IMG/VR virus record: IMGVR_UViG_3300037189_016726
Coordinates: 1-64,000 of that record
DNA length: 64,000 nt
Origin: a virus
Strand: one strand, 5' to 3'
The position numbers were made by a program, and so were the translations under genes. The notes under the pieces were generated by a model, which was not told the origin of the DNA, searched no databases, and was given only the letters and a program-made list of their open reading frames with translations. Within the stretch, counting starts at the first letter, position 1, and each line of letters opens with the position of its first letter. This document shows, one piece after another, positions 26,519-60,793 of the stretch.

Positions 26519-27279
26519 AGATCACGCCACCCTTCTTGATAACCTGTTATAGATGCTGGAATTGAATTTTTGTCCCGCTGGTAATCATTGAGCTTATCAA
26601 TAATATCACTAGCGACTTTCTTAGAAACCTTTTTGCCACTATCCACGTTAAATTCTTTGAATAGTTTCTTTCCATCAATATTGAGTTGCTTACACTTTAC
26701 ATCCATAAAGTTGTATTGTGCATCACTCATACGACTTTGTTCATTGTAATCACCGTCACTACTAGCCTTAGTGTTAGAGATTTCTCTAACAATCTTAGCA
26801 GTATCCTTCTTTGTTAGTTCTTCGGCAGCAACACCCTTAATCTTTAAAGCCTTTCGCAAAGCTCTAGCTTCTGCTCTTGTGCTAGCGATAGCAACAGCGT
26901 ATGCACAAAACATATCATCAGTGTTACCCTCCCAAGAGTCAGCAACTTCCGCATATCTCATACCATTAGCAAATTCTACTGAAAATATAACAGTAGCTCG
27001 ACCATGATGATCATCACGTTGAACTGGAAAAACTTGTGTTGGCCCACTAAAAACAATTGGACCTAGCACAAGTTCTGAAACACGCCTTAGACCAGCAACT
27101 AGAGGATGACCATCTATCAATTCTGATGGATCAAATAGTTTCATAGCATAATCATGCCATTCTGGAGATAGCATGGATGGTATTTCTGATCCTACCAAGT
27201 TCTTAACTGACGTATCAGTATTTGATGCTGTTTGTAACTCAACGCCAACGAACAAATCTTCATCTTGTGTGGTATTCAT
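26515..27279 (-). CDS. Putative ssDNA-annealing recombination protein (ERF/Rad52-like, tentative)
   Basis: The central part contains ATVIFSVEFANGMRYAEVAD followed by a helix with TRAEARALRKALK (about residues 133-145). This resembles the strand-helix core and TRA.gRALr motif of ERF-type single-strand annealing proteins. The C-terminal 60 residues (ending DIIDKLNDYQ) resemble the small helical domain often attached to such proteins. At 254 residues the length fits. It overlaps the upstream endonuclease gene by 4 nt and the downstream zinc-ribbon gene by 4 nt. RecA is already encoded in the window, so two recombination routes would coexist. The assignment is from motif appearance only; an unrelated phage DNA-metabolism protein is the alternative. 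Confidence 0.4.
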   Translation of the reverse strand: MNTTQDEDLFVGVELQTASNTDTSVKNLVGSEIPSMLSPEWHDYAMKLFDPSELIDGHPLVAGLRRVSELVLGPIVFSGPTQVFPVQRDDHHGRATVIFSVEFANGMRYAEVADSWEGNTDDMFCAYAVAIASTRAEARALRKALKIKGVAAEELTKKDTAKIVREISNTKASSDGDYNEQSRMSDAQYNFMDVKCKQLNIDGKKLFKEFNVDSGKKVSKKVASDIIDKLNDYQRDKNSIPASITGYQEGWRDL

Positions 27280-28043
27280 ATTTCTATCTCAATGTACCTT
27301 TCTGATTTACTTGGAAACGACTTCTCTATTTTACTCAACTGCTTGAGAATGTCAAGCTTCAATTTCTCTTTACTTGCTAAACATACAGAATCCGATAAGT
27401 TCTTAACCCTAATAATGACCATGCCTTTATTTAAAATTAAGCCTGTCTTATGAAAGTCTGCTTTGATTTGTTTTTGCAGTTTCTCTTCTCCCCAGATTGG
27501 AAGAAAATGGGATGGTCCGTCTATCTCTATTATAGTCTTGAGGGCTGGCAAGTACATGTCGATTTCTAGATTTTCATTGACTATCAAGCCCTTTTTATGA
27601 TATTCTATCCTATAACCAGCATTACCCAATTCTGTTTGTAAAAATTTCTCTAATTTAGAACCCTCTTTCCCAGCTAATTGAATAGCTTTAATCGCTGCTG
27701 ATTGCATATTATCTTTTTCAACTTCTGTCATATTTGACCATCTAAATTTTGCTTGTTTAATGCGTGATTCATAAAGTTCTTCACTCATATTTTTCCAATA
27801 TTTTTGAAGACCAGAACTGATTTTTAATTTTTCAATATCACTTCTTTTTTTACCACTAGTTGGATGAATAGCAGTGCCTTGCTCAATAGCATTCTTTTGA
27901 GCTTCACTTTTTGTTTTTAAAGCAACACCGTTCTTGATGAGAATACGCCTTATCTTATTTGGATAAGTCTTGCATTCTTCTGCAATTTCATATGTGCTTT
28001 TATGATGATCTACATACATTTTCACGATTTTTAAATCGTCCAT
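27276..28043 (-). CDS. HTH + NUMOD-like + Vsr-type (EDxHD) homing endonuclease
   Basis: In the 255-residue product, residues 1-45 look like a helix-turn-helix (STYEIAEECKTYPNKIRRIL). Residues about 58-100 resemble NUMOD3-like DNA-contact repeats (HPTSGKKRSDIEKLKISSGL). Residues about 125-220 form a Vsr/PD-(D/E)XK-like nuclease with EIDMYLPALKTIIEIDGPSH and the acidic and His residues expected for EDxHD homing enzymes. This modular order is typical of free-standing phage homing endonucleases. It overlaps the 3' end of the upstream gene by 44 nt and the downstream gene by 4 nt, as if it had inserted between them. The nuclease call is good; the recognition site is unknown. Confidence 0.75.
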   Translation of the reverse strand: MDDLKIVKMYVDHHKSTYEIAEECKTYPNKIRRILIKNGVALKTKSEAQKNAIEQGTAIHPTSGKKRSDIEKLKISSGLQKYWKNMSEELYESRIKQAKFRWSNMTEVEKDNMQSAAIKAIQLAGKEGSKLEKFLQTELGNAGYRIEYHKKGLIVNENLEIDMYLPALKTIIEIDGPSHFLPIWGEEKLQKQIKADFHKTGLILNKGMVIIRVKNLSDSVCLASKEKLKLDILKQLSKIEKSFPSKSERYIEIEI

Positions 28044-36737: not shown

Positions 36738-38297
36738 TCAAATCTCATGAATTTGGTTGATTATGAAAGACGAATCATGGTCAGCAACGCTACCGCAAAA
36801 GATTAGATTATTCCCCTCGTATAGTACGTATTTGTATTTTTCTTTGACTTTTGGGAATACTATAACACTATCAAGTATACATGAGTCATCTTCTATTGTT
36901 AAAAATGACATCATTTGCCCCTTTGATTCACCCTTAGTTATTTTATAGTCAGAAACTCTTTGAACATTAGCAACTACGCACAAATCTTTACCCTTCTTAC
37001 CATTAACAATATCTTTACATGTTGTGTTAGCCGCAGAGGTATCCGATGTTTCAATCTTTGTCATTGTTACTGGACAACCCAAGAATTTAACTTCTTGATC
37101 TATTAACCAACTTGGTTCATCCTCCAAGTCATATGGAGGATTTACCAAAAGCTGTATCTCATTCTCTATAAATTGTTTTCTATCAGCTTTGCTTGTTCCA
37201 CCACCCTCTTTTTTAGTTGGAGCTAAGTCTTTCAAGCAATCGATAAATGTTTTCCATTTTTTAGATGGATACTGATTTAATATCCACGTTTTCTCAGCCT
37301 GTGTCAGATTTTTAAATATGTCATAATCATATAGCGCTTTATTCCTGCTAATTTTTTCTGAAAAATCACGATAGAATCCTATAGACGCTAACGCTTTAAA
37401 TGATGTTGAACTAACGTTAGAACTAAAGTATATCAATAGTTCAACCCATGAGAATTTGGTTATTTTCTTATTAGCAATTTTTTCAGCCTCACTAATAGCT
37501 TCTATTAACTTGTCGCCCGTTTTACCAGTTAATGATTTGATATCTTTAATTCCAAAGTATATCTTGCCATTCTTAAAATTGAACTTTGTGTCAAAGTTTG
37601 CAAGACTTGGAGTTCTTACTTGTATATCAAATAACTTCGCTTCCGAAATAAGCTCATAAACCTCTTGATGAGGGTCTTGTTTTTCATTAGCGTAATATAG
37701 GTATGATAAGAAGAATTCTGGAGTATTGTGAGCTTTATAATACGCACTCCAGTACGAACATACAGCATAAGATATGCTATGAGACTTATTAAAAGCATAT
37801 CTAGCGGACTTCTCAATCCATCCGAAAATTTGTTCTGCTTCTTCTTTTGTTACCATACCAACTCGCTGTGATCCCTCAATGAATGATTTCTTAACTTCGT
37901 TCATGAGATCAGCCTTTTTCTTTCCGATGGCCTTACGAAGAACGTCAGCCTCTTGTAGATTGAAACCGGCGACCTTCTGGGCTATACGCATAGACTGCTC
38001 TTGATAAACTAGAACTCCATACGTTGGCTTTAAGATTTCTTCTAGAGATTCATGTAGGTACGTAACCTCTTCCCTGCCGTGTTTTCTATCCACGTAATGC
38101 TGAGTCATAGACTTTCCATCAACGAAAGCTTTTAATGTTCCCGGCCTAATAATAGCAATAAGAGCAGACAGTTCTTCAATGTTGGTAGGAGCAACTTTCT
38201 TAGCCCAAGCTTTACCAAGATTACTTTCTAGCTGAAAAACACCTTTGGTCTTGCCTTCTGCAAATAATTGCCAAGTTTTTTTATCATTGTAGTCCAT
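36738..38297 (-). CDS. dnaE: DNA polymerase III alpha (DnaE), C-terminal part: fingers, HhH, OB
   Basis: The 519-residue product begins exactly inside the DnaE fingers (MDYNDKKTWQLFAEGKTKGV, matching PLDDKKTFELL...GVFQLES). It continues with LIAIIRPGTLKAF, RKHGREEVTYLH, PTYGVLVYQEQSMRIAQKVA, DVLRKAIGKKKADLM and YAFNKSHSISYAVCSYWSAY, all diagnostic of C-family polymerases. A helix-hairpin-helix-like region and a C-terminal OB domain (VVANVQRVSDYKITKG...) follow. No catalytic aspartates are here; they are in the separate N-terminal gene (39318-40946). The start codon lies within the last codons of the HNH gene (14-nt overlap). The two parts should assemble into one polymerase. No intein motif is present. 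Confidence 0.9.
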   Translation of the reverse strand: MDYNDKKTWQLFAEGKTKGVFQLESNLGKAWAKKVAPTNIEELSALIAIIRPGTLKAFVDGKSMTQHYVDRKHGREEVTYLHESLEEILKPTYGVLVYQEQSMRIAQKVAGFNLQEADVLRKAIGKKKADLMNEVKKSFIEGSQRVGMVTKEEAEQIFGWIEKSARYAFNKSHSISYAVCSYWSAYYKAHNTPEFFLSYLYYANEKQDPHQEVYELISEAKLFDIQVRTPSLANFDTKFNFKNGKIYFGIKDIKSLTGKTGDKLIEAISEAEKIANKKITKFSWVELLIYFSSNVSSTSFKALASIGFYRDFSEKISRNKALYDYDIFKNLTQAEKTWILNQYPSKKWKTFIDCLKDLAPTKKEGGGTSKADRKQFIENEIQLLVNPPYDLEDEPSWLIDQEVKFLGCPVTMTKIETSDTSAANTTCKDIVNGKKGKDLCVVANVQRVSDYKITKGESKGQMMSFLTIEDDSCILDSVIVFPKVKEKYKYVLYEGNNLIFCGSVADHDSSFIINQIHEI

Positions 38298-38655
38298 TTA
38301 AATAATCCAATGCTCTGTGTAATAATATTGTACTATCATTTAGATGACCTAAAGCTCTATTACATTTATGACATAGCCATCCTCTAAATTTTTTAGTGGT
38401 ATGGCAATGATCTACTACCCAAGGTCCAGAAGATTTACCACCTTCTCCATTACATTCTTGTCCAGATCTTTGACATATTGGGCAATTATATGTTAAGTCT
38501 GGTTCTTTGTGTTCTTTTCTTAAGTTTTTACGCAACTTACTCATAGCATTATTACAATTTTTACATTCAGATCTTGGATATGGTCTTCCACTATGTCTAC
38601 TGAATTTATCTAGTGGCAATGATTGTTTGCATTTACTGCATATTTTATTTAACAT
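38284..38655 (-). CDS. Endonuclease VII-type HNH nuclease lying inside the split polymerase locus
   Basis: I prefer the ATG at 38655 (preceded by GGTGGTCTAT) to upstream in-frame starts. The 123-residue product has an N-terminal zinc motif (CSKCKQSLPLDKF ... CKNCNN) and then CPICQR followed by PWVVDHCHTTKKFRGWLCHK and CNRALGHL, which is the zinc and DH..H signature of the T4 endonuclease VII family. In phages this fold serves as Holliday-junction resolvase or as a free-standing homing nuclease. Its place between the exonuclease and the second polymerase fragment, overlapping both (11 and 14 nt), favours a homing origin, but a resolvase role is also possible. Confidence 0.85.
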   Translation of the reverse strand: MLNKICSKCKQSLPLDKFSRHSGRPYPRSECKNCNNAMSKLRKNLRKEHKEPDLTYNCPICQRSGQECNGEGGKSSGPWVVDHCHTTKKFRGWLCHKCNRALGHLNDSTILLHRALDYLNGLQ

Positions 38656-39325
38656 ATAGACCACCATTCGCAAATGCTTTATCAAAAGTTATGTTCTGAT
38701 AGACTGATCGATGTGTTTTCATTAGCTTGATAAAGATGTTGGCCTCGTCCTTAACGTCTTGTAGAGCGTCGTGAGCATTTTCTTTGCTAAGACCCATTCT
38801 TTCTCGTAGAGAATCCATGCTAATTGACTTTACTGATGGATCACTTTCTGTCCAAACAAAAACATTATCCATAATATCAACCTTGTAAACTTTACTAAAT
38901 AGTTTCTGCTGCTCTCTTTCCTTATCCCAAGGACCATACTCTTTACAGAGTCTATTGATAATATGCATATCAAATCCAAGAATATTAAAACCAACAGGAA
39001 TAGGAGCAAAAAATGGATCGCCCTTCCAATTATATTGATCAACAAACTTGACAAATTTTGACCATACAGACTTAATAGACGGTGCTTCTGCTAAAGCTTC
39101 TCTAGTTTTACCAGTAATTTTTAAAGCCTCATCTTGAAGAGGATCTAAACCAAGAGATAAAGCTTCTTGATCATCAAGTATGGGTTTAATTTCACTATTA
39201 AATTGCCCTTTCATTGATAAGTTTCTACCATCAAGAGCTATTGCAGCAATCTGTGTTGGTTGGGTTTTGTGTGGATTTCTTGAACCTGTTTCAAAATCAA
39301 ATATAATATAATCTCTATTAGCCAT
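38645..39325 (-). CDS. DnaQ-like 3'-5' proofreading exonuclease
   Basis: The 226-residue product is a DEDDh exonuclease: YIIFDFETGS gives the DxE motif (about residues 10-12), PVGFNILGFDMHIINRL the middle Asp, and NAHDALQDVKDE the His and last Asp. It resembles the epsilon subunit of DNA polymerase III. The start overlaps the stop of the N-terminal polymerase gene by 8 nt, so polymerase and proofreader are translationally coupled. The PHP domain of the polymerase seems to lack metal ligands, so this protein is the likely source of proofreading. Confidence 0.85.
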   Translation of the reverse strand: MANRDYIIFDFETGSRNPHKTQPTQIAAIALDGRNLSMKGQFNSEIKPILDDQEALSLGLDPLQDEALKITGKTREALAEAPSIKSVWSKFVKFVDQYNWKGDPFFAPIPVGFNILGFDMHIINRLCKEYGPWDKEREQQKLFSKVYKVDIMDNVFVWTESDPSVKSISMDSLRERMGLSKENAHDALQDVKDEANIFIKLMKTHRSVYQNITFDKAFANGGLYVK

Positions 39326-40946
39326 TTTTTACTCCGGTTAGGTCTTGTATCATCATAATTTTGTCTAGTAAATTAATTCCTAGAACGTCAAACTTGACAT
39401 GACCAAGAGCTTCTAGGTCTGTCATCTCCAACCCTGCAATTTTCTCAGACGAATCACGCTGTTTAACCATTGGACAAACAGTATTTAACTTTTTAGCCGA
39501 TATAACAACACCAGCGGCATGTTTACCTTGTGTTTTAAATGTTCCTTCAATTTTGATGGCTTGATCAAAATATTCTGCATAGTTTCCTTCTAATTTACCA
39601 TCATCATTTATATAGCAAAAATCTCTCAATTCATTAGCATTATTTATCAATGCCCAACGTATGATTGATCTATGTTCATCATCCATATCCGCAAGCTGAT
39701 CTGAAATTTCAGCTTCGTTAGGAATACTCTTTGTTATAGCATTCATTTCACCAAAAGAACATGCCTCATTGATACGCAATACTTCTTTAATAGCACTTCT
39801 TCCCTGTAGTCTACCAAATGTGATCATTTGACTAACGTGGTCGCTACCATATTTCTTCTTAAGATATGAAATAACTTCATCACGTTTTTTGCCGGGAACG
39901 TCCATATCAATATCTGGCAGTGAGATATGGTCTTCACTATTTCGTCCAGCATTATAAAATCTAGCAAACAATAGGTCAAATTCTATTGGATCAATCTTTG
40001 TTATTCCAATAAGATATGATATTAAACAACCGGCGGCAGAACCTCTACCGGGACCACAAAGCCAGCCCTGACTTTCACAGTAATGAATAATATCCCGAAC
40101 TATTAGAAAATAACCGAATAGATTGGCACCCTTAATTACATCAAACTCCTCTTTAAATCTATCTAGATATTTCTGTTTATCTTCTGGCTTAGAAACCTTA
40201 TCATTATCTATTAATAGACTTTTCCAACCGATGCGGCATAGTTCTTTTAAGTAGTCTTCTTCTGTTTGATCATTTGGACATGAGAACTTTGGCAAGTTGG
40301 GCTTACTAAGAATATCATAATCTTCGCACTGATTATAAATATCTTCCAGCTTATCTGTTTCTAATTCTTTTGATTCATCCTTATCAAGAACATAGAATGT
40401 GTCAGACATGAAGTAATTTAATTTATCCATATGGCTGTTCATATCTGAACCAACATTTACATTCCCGCTCTTATCCTTTCTGATAGCTTTGTTAACTCTT
40501 GGTAGAGTTGTTTTCATATCAGAGCATAGCAATATTCTATGCAATTTAGCATCTTCCCTATTGGTATAGTAGCTTATGGGAATAGACTTGCTTGGAGAAT
40601 TAGAAAGTTTTATCAAGTTATTCTTATTGAATATTTTGTTAAATATCGCTTCTGACAAATCGCCATTTTCGTCAATAGATGATACCAACTCTATTAGGTC
40701 GTGCCACCCATCTTTATTCTTAGCAAATACCTTAAACTTATCAAAAGAGCATCCTATTATTGGCTTAATGCCATTACTTTTACAAGCCTTATAAAAAGAT
40801 ATTGCGCCAGATATAGTCTTATGGTCGCAAATACCGCAAGCTATATAGCCATTAGCTTTACACTTTTCTGCCAATTCTTCTGGCTTTGAAAAGCCTTTAA
40901 GTAAACTATAATGGGTATAGTTATTCAATGGAAACCAAGATGACAT
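39318..40946 (-). CDS. dnaE: DNA polymerase III alpha (DnaE), N-terminal part: PHP, palm, thumb
   Basis: I chose the ATG at 40946, which has AAGGAATAAT before it, over a TTG at 40964; this gives 542 residues. The PHP domain is recognisable (YSLLKGFSKPEELAEKCKAN, GICDHKTISGAISFYKACKS), but the first metal-binding HxH region reads NNYTHYSLL, so the PHP site is probably inactive. The palm has GPGRGSAAGCLISYLIGIT, LPDIDMDVPGKKRDEVI with the two catalytic Asp, and GHVKFDVLGINLLDKI with the third. The protein then stops 16 residues later, where the fingers should start. The fingers are encoded at 36738-38297. Together the parts make about 1060 residues, close to a normal DnaE. Confidence 0.9.
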   Translation of the reverse strand: MSSWFPLNNYTHYSLLKGFSKPEELAEKCKANGYIACGICDHKTISGAISFYKACKSNGIKPIIGCSFDKFKVFAKNKDGWHDLIELVSSIDENGDLSEAIFNKIFNKNNLIKLSNSPSKSIPISYYTNREDAKLHRILLCSDMKTTLPRVNKAIRKDKSGNVNVGSDMNSHMDKLNYFMSDTFYVLDKDESKELETDKLEDIYNQCEDYDILSKPNLPKFSCPNDQTEEDYLKELCRIGWKSLLIDNDKVSKPEDKQKYLDRFKEEFDVIKGANLFGYFLIVRDIIHYCESQGWLCGPGRGSAAGCLISYLIGITKIDPIEFDLLFARFYNAGRNSEDHISLPDIDMDVPGKKRDEVISYLKKKYGSDHVSQMITFGRLQGRSAIKEVLRINEACSFGEMNAITKSIPNEAEISDQLADMDDEHRSIIRWALINNANELRDFCYINDDGKLEGNYAEYFDQAIKIEGTFKTQGKHAAGVVISAKKLNTVCPMVKQRDSSEKIAGLEMTDLEALGHVKFDVLGINLLDKIMMIQDLTGVKNG

Positions 40947-47976: not shown

Positions 47977-48452
47977 TATAACCTCTTAGCCTTTTCTAGT
48001 AGTATGTCTGCTTTACGTTTTAGTTCATATACTTTTCCATCCAAAGCTTGTAGTCTAGCTTCTGCAACTTCACGCATTTTATCTACTGACGCTGCATAGT
48101 TATTATCTTTAATAATGATCTGTCTTTTAACTTCATGCTTAGTATATTGACCAAACTCATCATTATGTGCAACAACTAGTTTTTCTAATTGATCATTACA
48201 CCAATTGAAAGCTATTTTGTTTTTATTGATTTCATCTTGGATATATGTTGAATAAGCATATAGTGTATAAGCTGCATCAAAAGCTTCCTGCTGTGTTAGC
48301 TTCTTTAAATCATCCAAGGATAAATTAGCAGTTAATAGGTATTCCTCTCTAAATGAAGAAAACTTTGTATTACTAAGATCAATGTAAGATGCAATTTGAC
48401 TTATATGTTCTGATAACTTGTCAGATGCCTTTAATGCGTTCTCTCCACTCAT
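47976..48452 (-). CDS. Helical protein, possible UvsY-like recombination mediator
   Basis: I chose the ATG at 48452; an earlier TTG at 48488 is possible. The 158-residue product is almost all helix. Its C-terminal half (KHEVKRQIIIKDNNYAASVD, then ARLQALDGKVYELKRKADIL) has the spacing of T4 UvsY (a charged helix, I..D..V, then L.yL..a...lk.R...I). UvsY loads the RecA-like UvsX onto SSB-covered ssDNA. RecA, a nuclease and the helicase are its neighbours. The match is by pattern only and could be a generic coiled coil. Confidence 0.4.
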   Translation of the reverse strand: MSGENALKASDKLSEHISQIASYIDLSNTKFSSFREEYLLTANLSLDDLKKLTQQEAFDAAYTLYAYSTYIQDEINKNKIAFNWCNDQLEKLVVAHNDEFGQYTKHEVKRQIIIKDNNYAASVDKMREVAEARLQALDGKVYELKRKADILLEKAKRL

Positions 48453-48843
48453 GGTCACTTTCTGAAAATTTGAGGATAACAATGTCAATATCGTTCAACT
48501 GGCACCACTCTATTTTATCTTCATCGCGGGCTTTTGCCTTTAAAAAATCGGCTTTGCTTTTATGAAAAAATGGAAAGTATTCATAATGCTGTTCACCGTG
48601 AACTTCAAAAGCTCTTTTAATTGATGGAATATAAAAGTCAAGATAAAGAACCGATTTTCTATTTAAAGCTGTACTTCCCGGTAATTTAACTTCTTCAAGA
48701 ATTCTATAGCTATGATAGATTTCTTTTAATAAGTTCCTAGCACGAATATGATATCTTGATCGTTTGCGTGAGTCATCGTAAAAAATATCATACTTCGTAA
48801 GATTCCAAACGTATTCCTTACCATTAATACCTTTTACTTTCAA
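48421..48843 (-). CDS. Vsr/EDxHD-type endonuclease next to recA
   Basis: The start is a TTG that overlaps the recA stop (TTGA), with AAGGAG five bases upstream, so it is coupled to recA. The 140-residue protein has SVLYLDFYIPSIKRAFEVHG followed by EQHYEYFPFFHKSKADF and DEDKIEWCQLNDIDIVILKF, the single-domain Vsr-like nuclease pattern with D, E, H. The same catalytic core occurs in the homing endonuclease at 27276-28043, but here there is no DNA-binding module. It may be a recombination or repair nuclease. Confidence 0.7.
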   Translation of the reverse strand: MKVKGINGKEYVWNLTKYDIFYDDSRKRSRYHIRARNLLKEIYHSYRILEEVKLPGSTALNRKSVLYLDFYIPSIKRAFEVHGEQHYEYFPFFHKSKADFLKAKARDEDKIEWCQLNDIDIVILKFSESDHEWRERIKGI

Positions 48844-59899: not shown

Positions 59900-60793
59900 T
59901 TATGGTGTTGCTGACCACCAGATTTTTAGATTGACGAATGCTGTTGAAGAGTCTGGATTAAAATATAATGTTTGACCCGCTGTTATAGCTTTGCTTCCAG
60001 ATGTAGAACCTACACATTGATATGTTGTACTTCCACCTGCGGCTGTGAGAATTTCAAAATAATCATTTCCACAATCTGATAGTGTTAAACTATTCCAACT
60101 CCATTTAATATATCCTGTTGTATTTACTACTCTTCCAGTGTTATATGTTGCAATAGTAGATGCTACGAATGGGCTGGCTAGCGTTCCGCTTCCAGTAAAT
60201 CCAACAGCATTCCATGCGGCATTAGCTGTTCCCCAAGGATTTGGAGCGGCTGTTGTGGTCGTGGTTGACGTTGTAGTTGGTGCTGATGTGGTAGTGGTGC
60301 TTGTTGTTGTGCTGGTCGTAGTTGTACTTGTAGTAGTAGTTGTGCTAGTCGTGGTAGTCGTGGTAGTAGTTGTGGTAGTTGTACTGGTGGTGGTAGTTGT
60401 GCTGGTAGTTGTGCTGGTAGTGGTAGTTGGCGCTAGCGTGGTTGATGTTGTAGTTGTGGTGGTGGTACTAGTTGTGCTAGTTGTGGTGCTAGTTGTGGTT
60501 GTGGTTGTGGTGCTGGTTGTGGTCGGCGTTGGCGTGGTTGTTGTGCTTGTGGTGGTTGTTGTGCTTGTGGTGGTTGTAGTGCTGGTGGTAGTTGTAGTAC
60601 TAGTTGTGGTTGTGCTGCTGGTTGTGCTAGTTGTAGTGCTAGTCGTACTTGTGGTACTAGTTGTAGCTGGGCCAGAAGTGGTTGTAACACCATTGGCTGT
60701 ATACGCTACAGAATTACCAATGTATATAGATGATACTTCAGTACCACCTACATACACTTTATTTATAGAGCTAGTGCCAACTTTTAAAGTCAT
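59900..60793 (-). CDS. Thr-rich stalk protein with N- and C-terminal globular parts
   Basis: In this 297-residue product, residues 1-36 (MTLKVGTSSINKVYVGGTEV SSIYIG...) look like a phage fibre attachment motif of the kind VYVG.tEv..iYiG. Residues about 37-183 are almost only Thr with some Ser and Pro. Residues 184-297 form a beta-rich C-terminal domain (YIKWSWNSLTLSDCGNDYFE), loosely like a CUB or jelly-roll binding domain. The layout is base, mucin-like stalk and head. The Thr stalk is a likely O-glycosylation target. It lies in a surface module upstream of the nucleotide genes. Confidence 0.65.
   Translation of the reverse strand: MTLKVGTSSINKVYVGGTEVSSIYIGNSVAYTANGVTTTSGPATTSTTSTTSTTTSTTSSTTTTSTTTTTSTTTTTSTTTTTSTTTTPTPTTTSTTTTTTTSTTTSTTSTTTTTTTSTTLAPTTTTSTTTSTTTTTSTTTTTTTTTTTTSTTTTTSTTTTSTTTSTTTTSAPTTTSTTTTTAAPNPWGTANAAWNAVGFTGSGTLASPFVASTIATYNTGRVVNTTGYIKWSWNSLTLSDCGNDYFEILTAAGGSTTYQCVGSTSGSKAITAGQTLYFNPDSSTAFVNLKIWWSATP
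60245..60685 (-). repeat. Thr-codon low-complexity tract (mucin-like stalk)
   Basis: The - strand reads as long runs of ACA, ACT and ACC codons broken by Ser, so synonymous Thr codons are mixed and the DNA repeat is imperfect. It codes for residues about 37-183 of the 59900-60793 protein. Slippage or recombination could change stalk length, and similar tracts occur at 63718-63912. Confidence 0.85.

What the first reader, a model, noticed from the sequence alone, without database searches (positions are those of the whole stretch)
36738..40946. Replicative DnaE polymerase split in two genes at the palm/fingers junction
Seen: the N-terminal gene (39318-40946) carries PHP, palm and all three catalytic Asp and stops just after GHVKFDVLGINLLDKI. 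The C-terminal gene (36738-38297) begins at the fingers motif DYNDKKTWQLF. Between them lie a DnaQ-like exonuclease and an endonuclease VII-type HNH gene, all overlapping. Known: homing endonucleases have created genes-in-pieces in phages (nrdA in Aeromonas phages, gp43 in some T4-like phages), and cyanobacterial DnaE is split by an intein at another site (YGFNKSHS). Here that site is intact and no intein is seen, so the parts must assemble non-covalently. A new natural split site for a C-family polymerase is the claim.
Basis: partly seen in the sequence, partly recalled or inferred. Interest (0 to 1): 0.75.

Follow-up and report, generated by a model that had tools for sequence, protein, structure and literature searches.

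The report
Phage replicase split around its exonuclease

Summary
In an 86.75-kb phage record, DnaE is encoded by an N gene (39318-40946, PHP + palm, all three catalytic Asp) and a C gene (36738-38297, fingers onward). Together they cover the DnaE models except about 15-25 residues of a linker. Comparison with relatives changes the story. All 108 distinct relatives with both halves (48-87% identical in N) are split at this same point, none is fused, and all have the DnaQ-like exonuclease between the halves. The HNH gene is optional. About 40% of loci have no insert at all; others carry HNH, methyltransferase, glycosyltransferase or unknown genes at either junction, with about 20 gains or losses per junction. 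So the split is ancient, single-origin and independent of HNH. An intron is excluded (no room, no Rfam hit). No intein is present at the split, although two relatives carry split inteins elsewhere in the same polymerase, which shows that inteins would have been recognised. No other polymerase was found in the own record or in large relatives' records. Best reading: a replicase assembled non-covalently from palm and fingers subunits, co-translated with its exonuclease. In 1,240 of 1,259 DnaE-bearing annotated phage records the junction is continuous.

The parts
39318..40946 (-). DnaE N-half (542 aa): PHP (metal-site His not conserved) + palm with PDIDMD and HVKFD catalytic Asp; AAGGA-like ribosome site upstream
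38645..39325 (-). DnaQ-like DEDDh 3'-5' exonuclease (226 aa), overlaps the N-half stop by 8 nt; GGAG ribosome site lies inside the N-half 3' end
38284..38655 (-). Endonuclease VII-type HNH gene; optional passenger, absent from most relatives
36738..38297 (-). DnaE C-half (519 aa): fingers, (HhH)-like region, OB-like C-terminus; start ATG directly follows an in-frame TAA
36375..36686 (-). Single-strand DNA-binding protein gene directly downstream (replication context)
   Evidence: Pfam SSB

Best explanation
This is the phage's replicative C-family polymerase, encoded as two permanent subunits. The N subunit carries PHP, the palm and all catalytic aspartates; the C subunit carries the fingers and everything downstream. 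The break lies in the linker that follows the palm in ordinary DnaE. A DnaQ-like exonuclease gene has sat in the break since the family's ancestor. N, exonuclease and C are translated from one mRNA, in most cases with overlapping or abutting stops and starts (one mRNA and coupling are inferred), and are proposed to assemble non-covalently into an alpha-epsilon-like core. Endonuclease, methyltransferase, glycosyltransferase and unknown genes come and go at the two junctions, which tolerate insertion because the enzyme is already split. Shown: the split, its universality and single clade, purifying selection, and absence of a detectable intron, intein or second polymerase. Inferred: the non-covalent assembly, its activity, and the role of translational coupling.
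For: Split N-exo-C in 108/108 distinct loci, 0 fused. Split clade monophyletic against 13 DnaE unsplit at this junction, SH-aLRT 100. No internal stops in 90 loci; dN/dS about 0.01-0.10 for N, exo and C alike. Catalytic motifs PDID 90/90, QLES and YQEQ 90/90, exo HDALQD 90/90. N tails after LDK vary in length (11-24 aa, counted from LDK) and sequence, and the frame relation to exo varies, so there is no conserved splice or frameshift signal. Insert-free loci leave only the exo ORF between the halves; no Rfam match; no intein model matches P0001 or P0002, whereas inteins are found in L226 and L233. One PF07733 and one PF17657 hit in each of 12 phage records including own, and no PolA or PolB there. 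Primase, DnaB, RecA and SSB genes nearby.
Against: No protein, RNA or activity data. AlphaFold models of each half alone, from a 12-row alignment, were low confidence (pLDDT 57 and 54), and no complex could be modelled. The own record and relatives may be incomplete, so a second polymerase outside them, or use of the host polymerase, is not excluded. Only 80 loci per scan are returned although about 495 candidates matched, so a fused member could be unseen.
Confidence: 0.82

Rival explanations
1. Splicing rejoins the halves: exonuclease and HNH lie in a group I or II intron, or a hidden split intein fuses N and C.
For: Phage DnaE genes elsewhere do carry inteins and probable introns (Alicyclobacillus phage MMB025, phage G), and family members L226 and L233 carry split inteins.
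Against: Insert-free loci have only the 678-nt exo ORF, overlapping N and abutting C, with no room for a ribozyme; no Rfam hit. N tails run only 11-24 aa from LDK and C heads are about 10 aa or less, non-conserved and without intein motifs; intein models hit the known inteins but not P0001 or P0002. In L226 and L233 inteins sit at other sites and the palm/fingers break remains bare.
Confidence: 0.04
2. The fragments are relics and the phage replicates with the host polymerase or another phage polymerase.
For: Records are incomplete; no clamp gene (PF02768) was found in them, so some host replisome parts are probably used.
Against: Strong purifying selection and invariant catalytic residues in both halves across a family diverged to 48% identity; no other polymerase in the own record or large relatives' records apart from the bacterial contigs of the SAR202 MAG bin.
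Confidence: 0.06
3. A homing endonuclease created the split, as in Aeromonas phage nrdA or T4-like gp43, and was later lost in most lineages.
For: HNH or other nucleases occupy one of the junctions in many loci, and homing endonucleases do fragment phage genes (established knowledge).
Against: The HNH is absent from most loci, including basal L222; it shows about 11 changes on the tree, which reads as repeated late arrival. The exonuclease is the only constant element.
Confidence: 0.12
4. Sequencing frameshift or assembly artefact.
For: Fragmented DnaE annotations of that kind occur, e.g. Staphylococcus phage MVC_VPHSA1 with five pieces.
Against: 108 distinct loci, with a complete intact gene between the halves.
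Confidence: 0.005

Closest known systems
DnaE-type Pol III alpha of phages and bacteria (Moorella phage MTATph1, Brevibacillus phage Sundance, S. aureus-like DnaE in L183; E. coli alpha)
   Same: Same domains in the same order and the same catalytic motifs; about 28-36% identity
   Different: One chain across the palm/fingers junction in all; here two chains
Minimal split Pol III alpha of group 2.2 jumbo phages (Iyer et al. 2021, PMC7824862)
   Same: C-family catalytic subunit divided into two stand-alone phage proteins
   Different: There the NTP-binding part is separated from the Mg/template-binding part, the genes lie far apart, a PolB coexists and other Pol III domains are missing; here PHP, full palm and C-terminal domains are kept, all Asp are in one half, and it is the only polymerase detected
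Cellulophaga phage phiST/phi13:1 DnaE in two adjacent genes (KC821625 gp038/gp039); Bacteroides phage BS-TP1
   Same: Two-gene DnaE in phages
   Different: Break lies upstream of the PDIDMD-type motif, not after the palm; no exonuclease between
Cyanobacterial DnaE divided by a split intein at YxFNK/SHS
   Same: DnaE encoded by two genes
   Different: Different site, and rejoined covalently by protein splicing; here no intein at the break
PolC and Bacteroidetes DnaE1 (exonuclease inserted in PHP, or fused in one chain; Timinskas 2014, PMC3919608)
   Same: Exonuclease genetically tied to the alpha subunit
   Different: There it is covalently part of one chain; here a free gene lying inside the split
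Homing-endonuclease genes-in-pieces (nrdA of Aeromonas phages, gp43 of T4-like phages; from memory)
   Same: Essential replication gene divided with an endonuclease gene in the gap of some members
   Different: Here the gap is held constantly by a replication exonuclease and the endonuclease is optional

Membership tests
C-family DNA polymerase (DnaE) | PHP + Pol3 palm with three catalytic Asp | tested here: met
   PF02811, PF07733; PDIDMD and HVKFD conserved
C-family DNA polymerase (DnaE) | Fingers and (HhH) domains following the palm | tested here: met
   PF17657 over cut-off; HHH_6 sub-threshold; NF004226 587-1052; on a separate chain
C-family DNA polymerase (DnaE) | Single polypeptide across palm and fingers | tested here: not met
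   108/108 split, 0 fused
C-family DNA polymerase (DnaE) | Template-directed DNA synthesis | not testable with these tools
   needs biochemistry
Split-intein DnaE (cyanobacterial type) | IntN after the N-part and IntC before the C-part | tested here: not met
   no TIGR01445/TIGR01443 match in P0001/P0002; positive in L226, L233
Intron-interrupted gene | Ribozyme core between exons | tested here: not met
   no Rfam hit; no room in insert-free loci
Homing-endonuclease gene-in-pieces | Endonuclease gene regularly present at the split | tested here: not met
   present in a minority; about 11 changes on the tree
Iyer 2021 minimal split Pol III alpha | Break between NTP-binding and Mg-binding parts; PolB present; other Pol III domains absent | tested here: not met
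   break after the third Asp; no PolB; PHP and C-terminal domains present
DnaQ/epsilon-like proofreading exonuclease (P0003) | DEDDh motifs | tested here: met
   RNase_T over cut-off; DFET...FD..., HDALQD
DnaQ/epsilon-like proofreading exonuclease (P0003) | Binds alpha and proofreads | not testable with these tools
   inferred only from gene position
Free-standing homing endonuclease (P0004) | HNH / endonuclease VII fold and a target in the empty site | tested here: inconclusive
   Endonuclease_7 match; empty sites exist; cleavage not tested

The most novel reading that the evidence does not exclude
A whole phage family runs an obligately multi-chain C-family replicase, with the palm subunit, exonuclease and fingers subunit made from one coupled mRNA. 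Because the chain is permanently open at the palm/fingers linker, the junctions act as a safe harbour for cargo genes, as recombination boundaries and, in some members, alongside further fragmentation by split inteins.
Probability: 0.6. Interest if true: 0.75.

Novelty: new variant of a known kind. Interest (0 to 1): 0.6.

Why it matters
Replicative polymerases are treated as single chains whose palm and fingers must move in concert. A natural, ancient and apparently stable non-covalent split between them would show that the covalent link is dispensable, give a ready-made split site for engineered C-family polymerases, and let one test how alpha, epsilon and fingers assemble. It also shows the order of events: the split came first and mobile genes came later.

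Tried and rejected
Intron and intein explanations. HNH as a constant part. Programmed frameshift to an N-exo fusion: the frame relation differs between relatives and 500-700-nt inserts separate the genes in many. Recombination precisely at the split: own versus L004 changes similarity inside N, not at the break, whereas L054/L057 break at N|exo and L033/L039 have swapped exo, so it is not specific to the split. AlphaFold models of the halves were too poor to use, so no fold search was run. A DNA-pattern search for joined palm-fingers with the family's TW signature (AAA codon only) found one contig, L188, a distant DnaE (28% identity) interrupted elsewhere. One paper query was malformed. Searches for prior reports of this split found only Iyer 2021 and Timinskas 2014 as relevant; most subscription papers are not held, and Dassa 2009 on fractured genes was not available.

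Full report
WHAT IS THERE. On the minus strand of the window, four overlapping genes read N-half (40946-39318), DnaQ-like exonuclease (39325-38645), endonuclease VII-type HNH (38655-38284) and C-half (38297-36738), followed by an SSB gene. Pfam finds PHP + DNA_pol3_alpha in N, DNA_pol3_finger in C, RNase_T in the exonuclease and Endonuclease_7 in the HNH protein. On NCBIfam's DnaE model TIGR00594, N runs to position 571 and C starts at 586. On E. coli alpha, N aligns to residue 566 and C starts at 591. The break therefore removes only a linker, and all three catalytic Asp lie in N. The C-gene ATG directly follows an in-frame TAA, so the C protein starts anew.

HOW GENERAL. N-half searches of viral contigs use palm and PHP peptides that do not depend on the split, so a fused relative would be found as easily. 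Searches gave 108 distinct loci with both halves (own included), relatives being 48-87% identical to our N-half. All 108 are split, all 108 have the exonuclease between the halves, and none is fused. A tree of 26 members and 13 DnaE that are unsplit at this junction makes the split family one clade (SH-aLRT 100): one origin is enough. Long branches in the outgroup mean its inner order should not be trusted.

WHAT IS OPTIONAL. Of 78 complete distinct loci, 31 have no insert at either junction. N|exo inserts (25 loci) include a 164-aa family of unknown function, an HTH-containing protein that looks endonuclease-like by eye, FkbM methyltransferases and others. Exo|C inserts (34 loci) include endonuclease VII-type HNH (19), glycosyltransferase-like genes, an HNH_3 gene and others. 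Parsimony needs about 19 changes for N|exo, 18 for exo|C and 11 for the endonuclease VII family (recombination inflates such counts). The HNH gene is therefore a passenger, not the cause.

IS IT FUNCTIONAL. No internal stop occurs in N, exo or C in 90 loci. Pairwise dN/dS is about 0.01-0.10 in all three genes. PDID, QLES, RPG and YQEQ motifs are in 90/90 and exo HDALQD in 90/90. Own plus 11 further phage records of 97-167 kb each have exactly one palm and one fingers match and no PolA or PolB; the only extra hits are in the bacterial contigs of a SAR202 MAG bin. No bacterial-type clamp domain was found. DnaB, Toprim primase, RecA and ribonucleotide reductase lie in the same window. The PHP first motif reads NNYTHYSLLKG where metal-binding PHPs have HVHTEYSLLDG (my comparison), so PHP proofreading looks lost and the DEDDh exonuclease is the likely proofreader (inference).

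HOW THE HALVES MEET. Splicing is unlikely. In insert-free loci such as L018 and L021 the exo ORF overlaps N and abuts C, leaving no room for a ribozyme, and there is no Rfam hit. N tails counted from LDK are 11-24 aa and C heads about 10 aa or less, variable and intein-free. A natural positive control exists. Relative L226 has split inteins at GPGRG|S (palm) and FNK|SHA, and L233 has one at FNA|SHA (the cyanobacterial DnaE site). Each has an endonuclease-like ORF between intein halves, and the N-terminal intein model is over its cut-off. Yet the palm/fingers break in both is bare. In L226 the polymerase is thus encoded in four pieces: two pairs probably joined by trans-splicing, and one junction left open. 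I conclude that N and C associate non-covalently, with overlapping genes probably coupling their translation. This last step is inferred, not shown.

NOVELTY. A junction-spanning query matched 1,259 annotated phage records, and in 1,240 at least 80% of it lies in one place; the 60 sampled rows all show one piece. Two-gene DnaE seen elsewhere breaks at other points: Cellulophaga phages and BS-TP1 before PDIDMD, MMB025 inside the fingers around an endonuclease, phage G before VKFD with an apparent intein in the palm, PA5 within the palm. Iyer et al. 2021 (PMC7824862) describe a minimal split Pol III alpha in jumbo phages that differs in break, content and context. Timinskas et al. (PMC3919608) mention only intein splits and frameshift fragments in about 2,000 bacterial genomes. 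I therefore rate this as a new variant of a known kind, with a new site and a new constant partner. Subscription literature was not searchable, and no cultured relative above about 34% identity was found.

LIMITS. No activity, expression or complex model; low-quality AlphaFold models of single halves; incomplete records; and only the best 80 loci per scan.

Noticed in passing
L226:748-7826 (IMGVR_UViG_3300042335_001011): A relative whose DnaE is in four pieces: split inteins at GPGRG|S and FNK|SHA, each with an endonuclease-like ORF between intein halves, plus the bare palm/fingers break with exonuclease and glycosyltransferase genes.
   Followed up: partly
L233:7463-10347 (IMGVR_UViG_3300017788_001619): C-half broken by a split intein at the cyanobacterial DnaE site (FNA|SHA) with a Vsr/DUF559-like nuclease ORF between the halves.
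   Followed up: partly
L245 (Bacillus phage G 236000-250500): Phage G DnaE is scattered over gp329, gp331 and gp339; gp329 appears to hold an intein at the same GPGRG|S site as L226, and a homing endonuclease gene (gp330) lies between pieces.
   Followed up: partly
L242 (Bacteroides phage BS-TP1) 263-4939; L182 (Cellulophaga phage phi13:1) 2680-6280: DnaE in two genes broken just before the PDIDMD-type motif; in BS-TP1 a Dda-like helicase lies between and the N gene has an odd tail that might be an intein remnant.
   Followed up: partly
L054 vs L057; L033 vs L039: Mosaic loci: N-halves nearly identical while exo and C diverge (break at N|exo), and an exonuclease gene apparently swapped alone between otherwise close loci.
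   Followed up: partly
window 39318-40946 vs L001, L002, L004: Own N-half is nearest to L001/L002 but exo and C are nearest to L004 (97% and 94%); the change in similarity to L004 lies inside N around codons 200-300.
   Followed up: partly
L179 (VFHP01000007.1, SAR202 MAG): A 152-kb contig with the split polymerase sits in a SAR202 (Chloroflexota) MAG bin that has its own unsplit DnaE; a possible host hint or a binning error.
   Followed up: no
window 27276-28043 and 48421-48843: Two further nuclease-like ORFs (by eye; DUF559- or Vsr-like ends) with no Pfam match; possibly mobile endonucleases.
   Followed up: no
window 59900-60793: Low-complexity Ser/Thr-run protein (TTSTTTT...) with a folded-looking C-terminus.
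   Followed up: no
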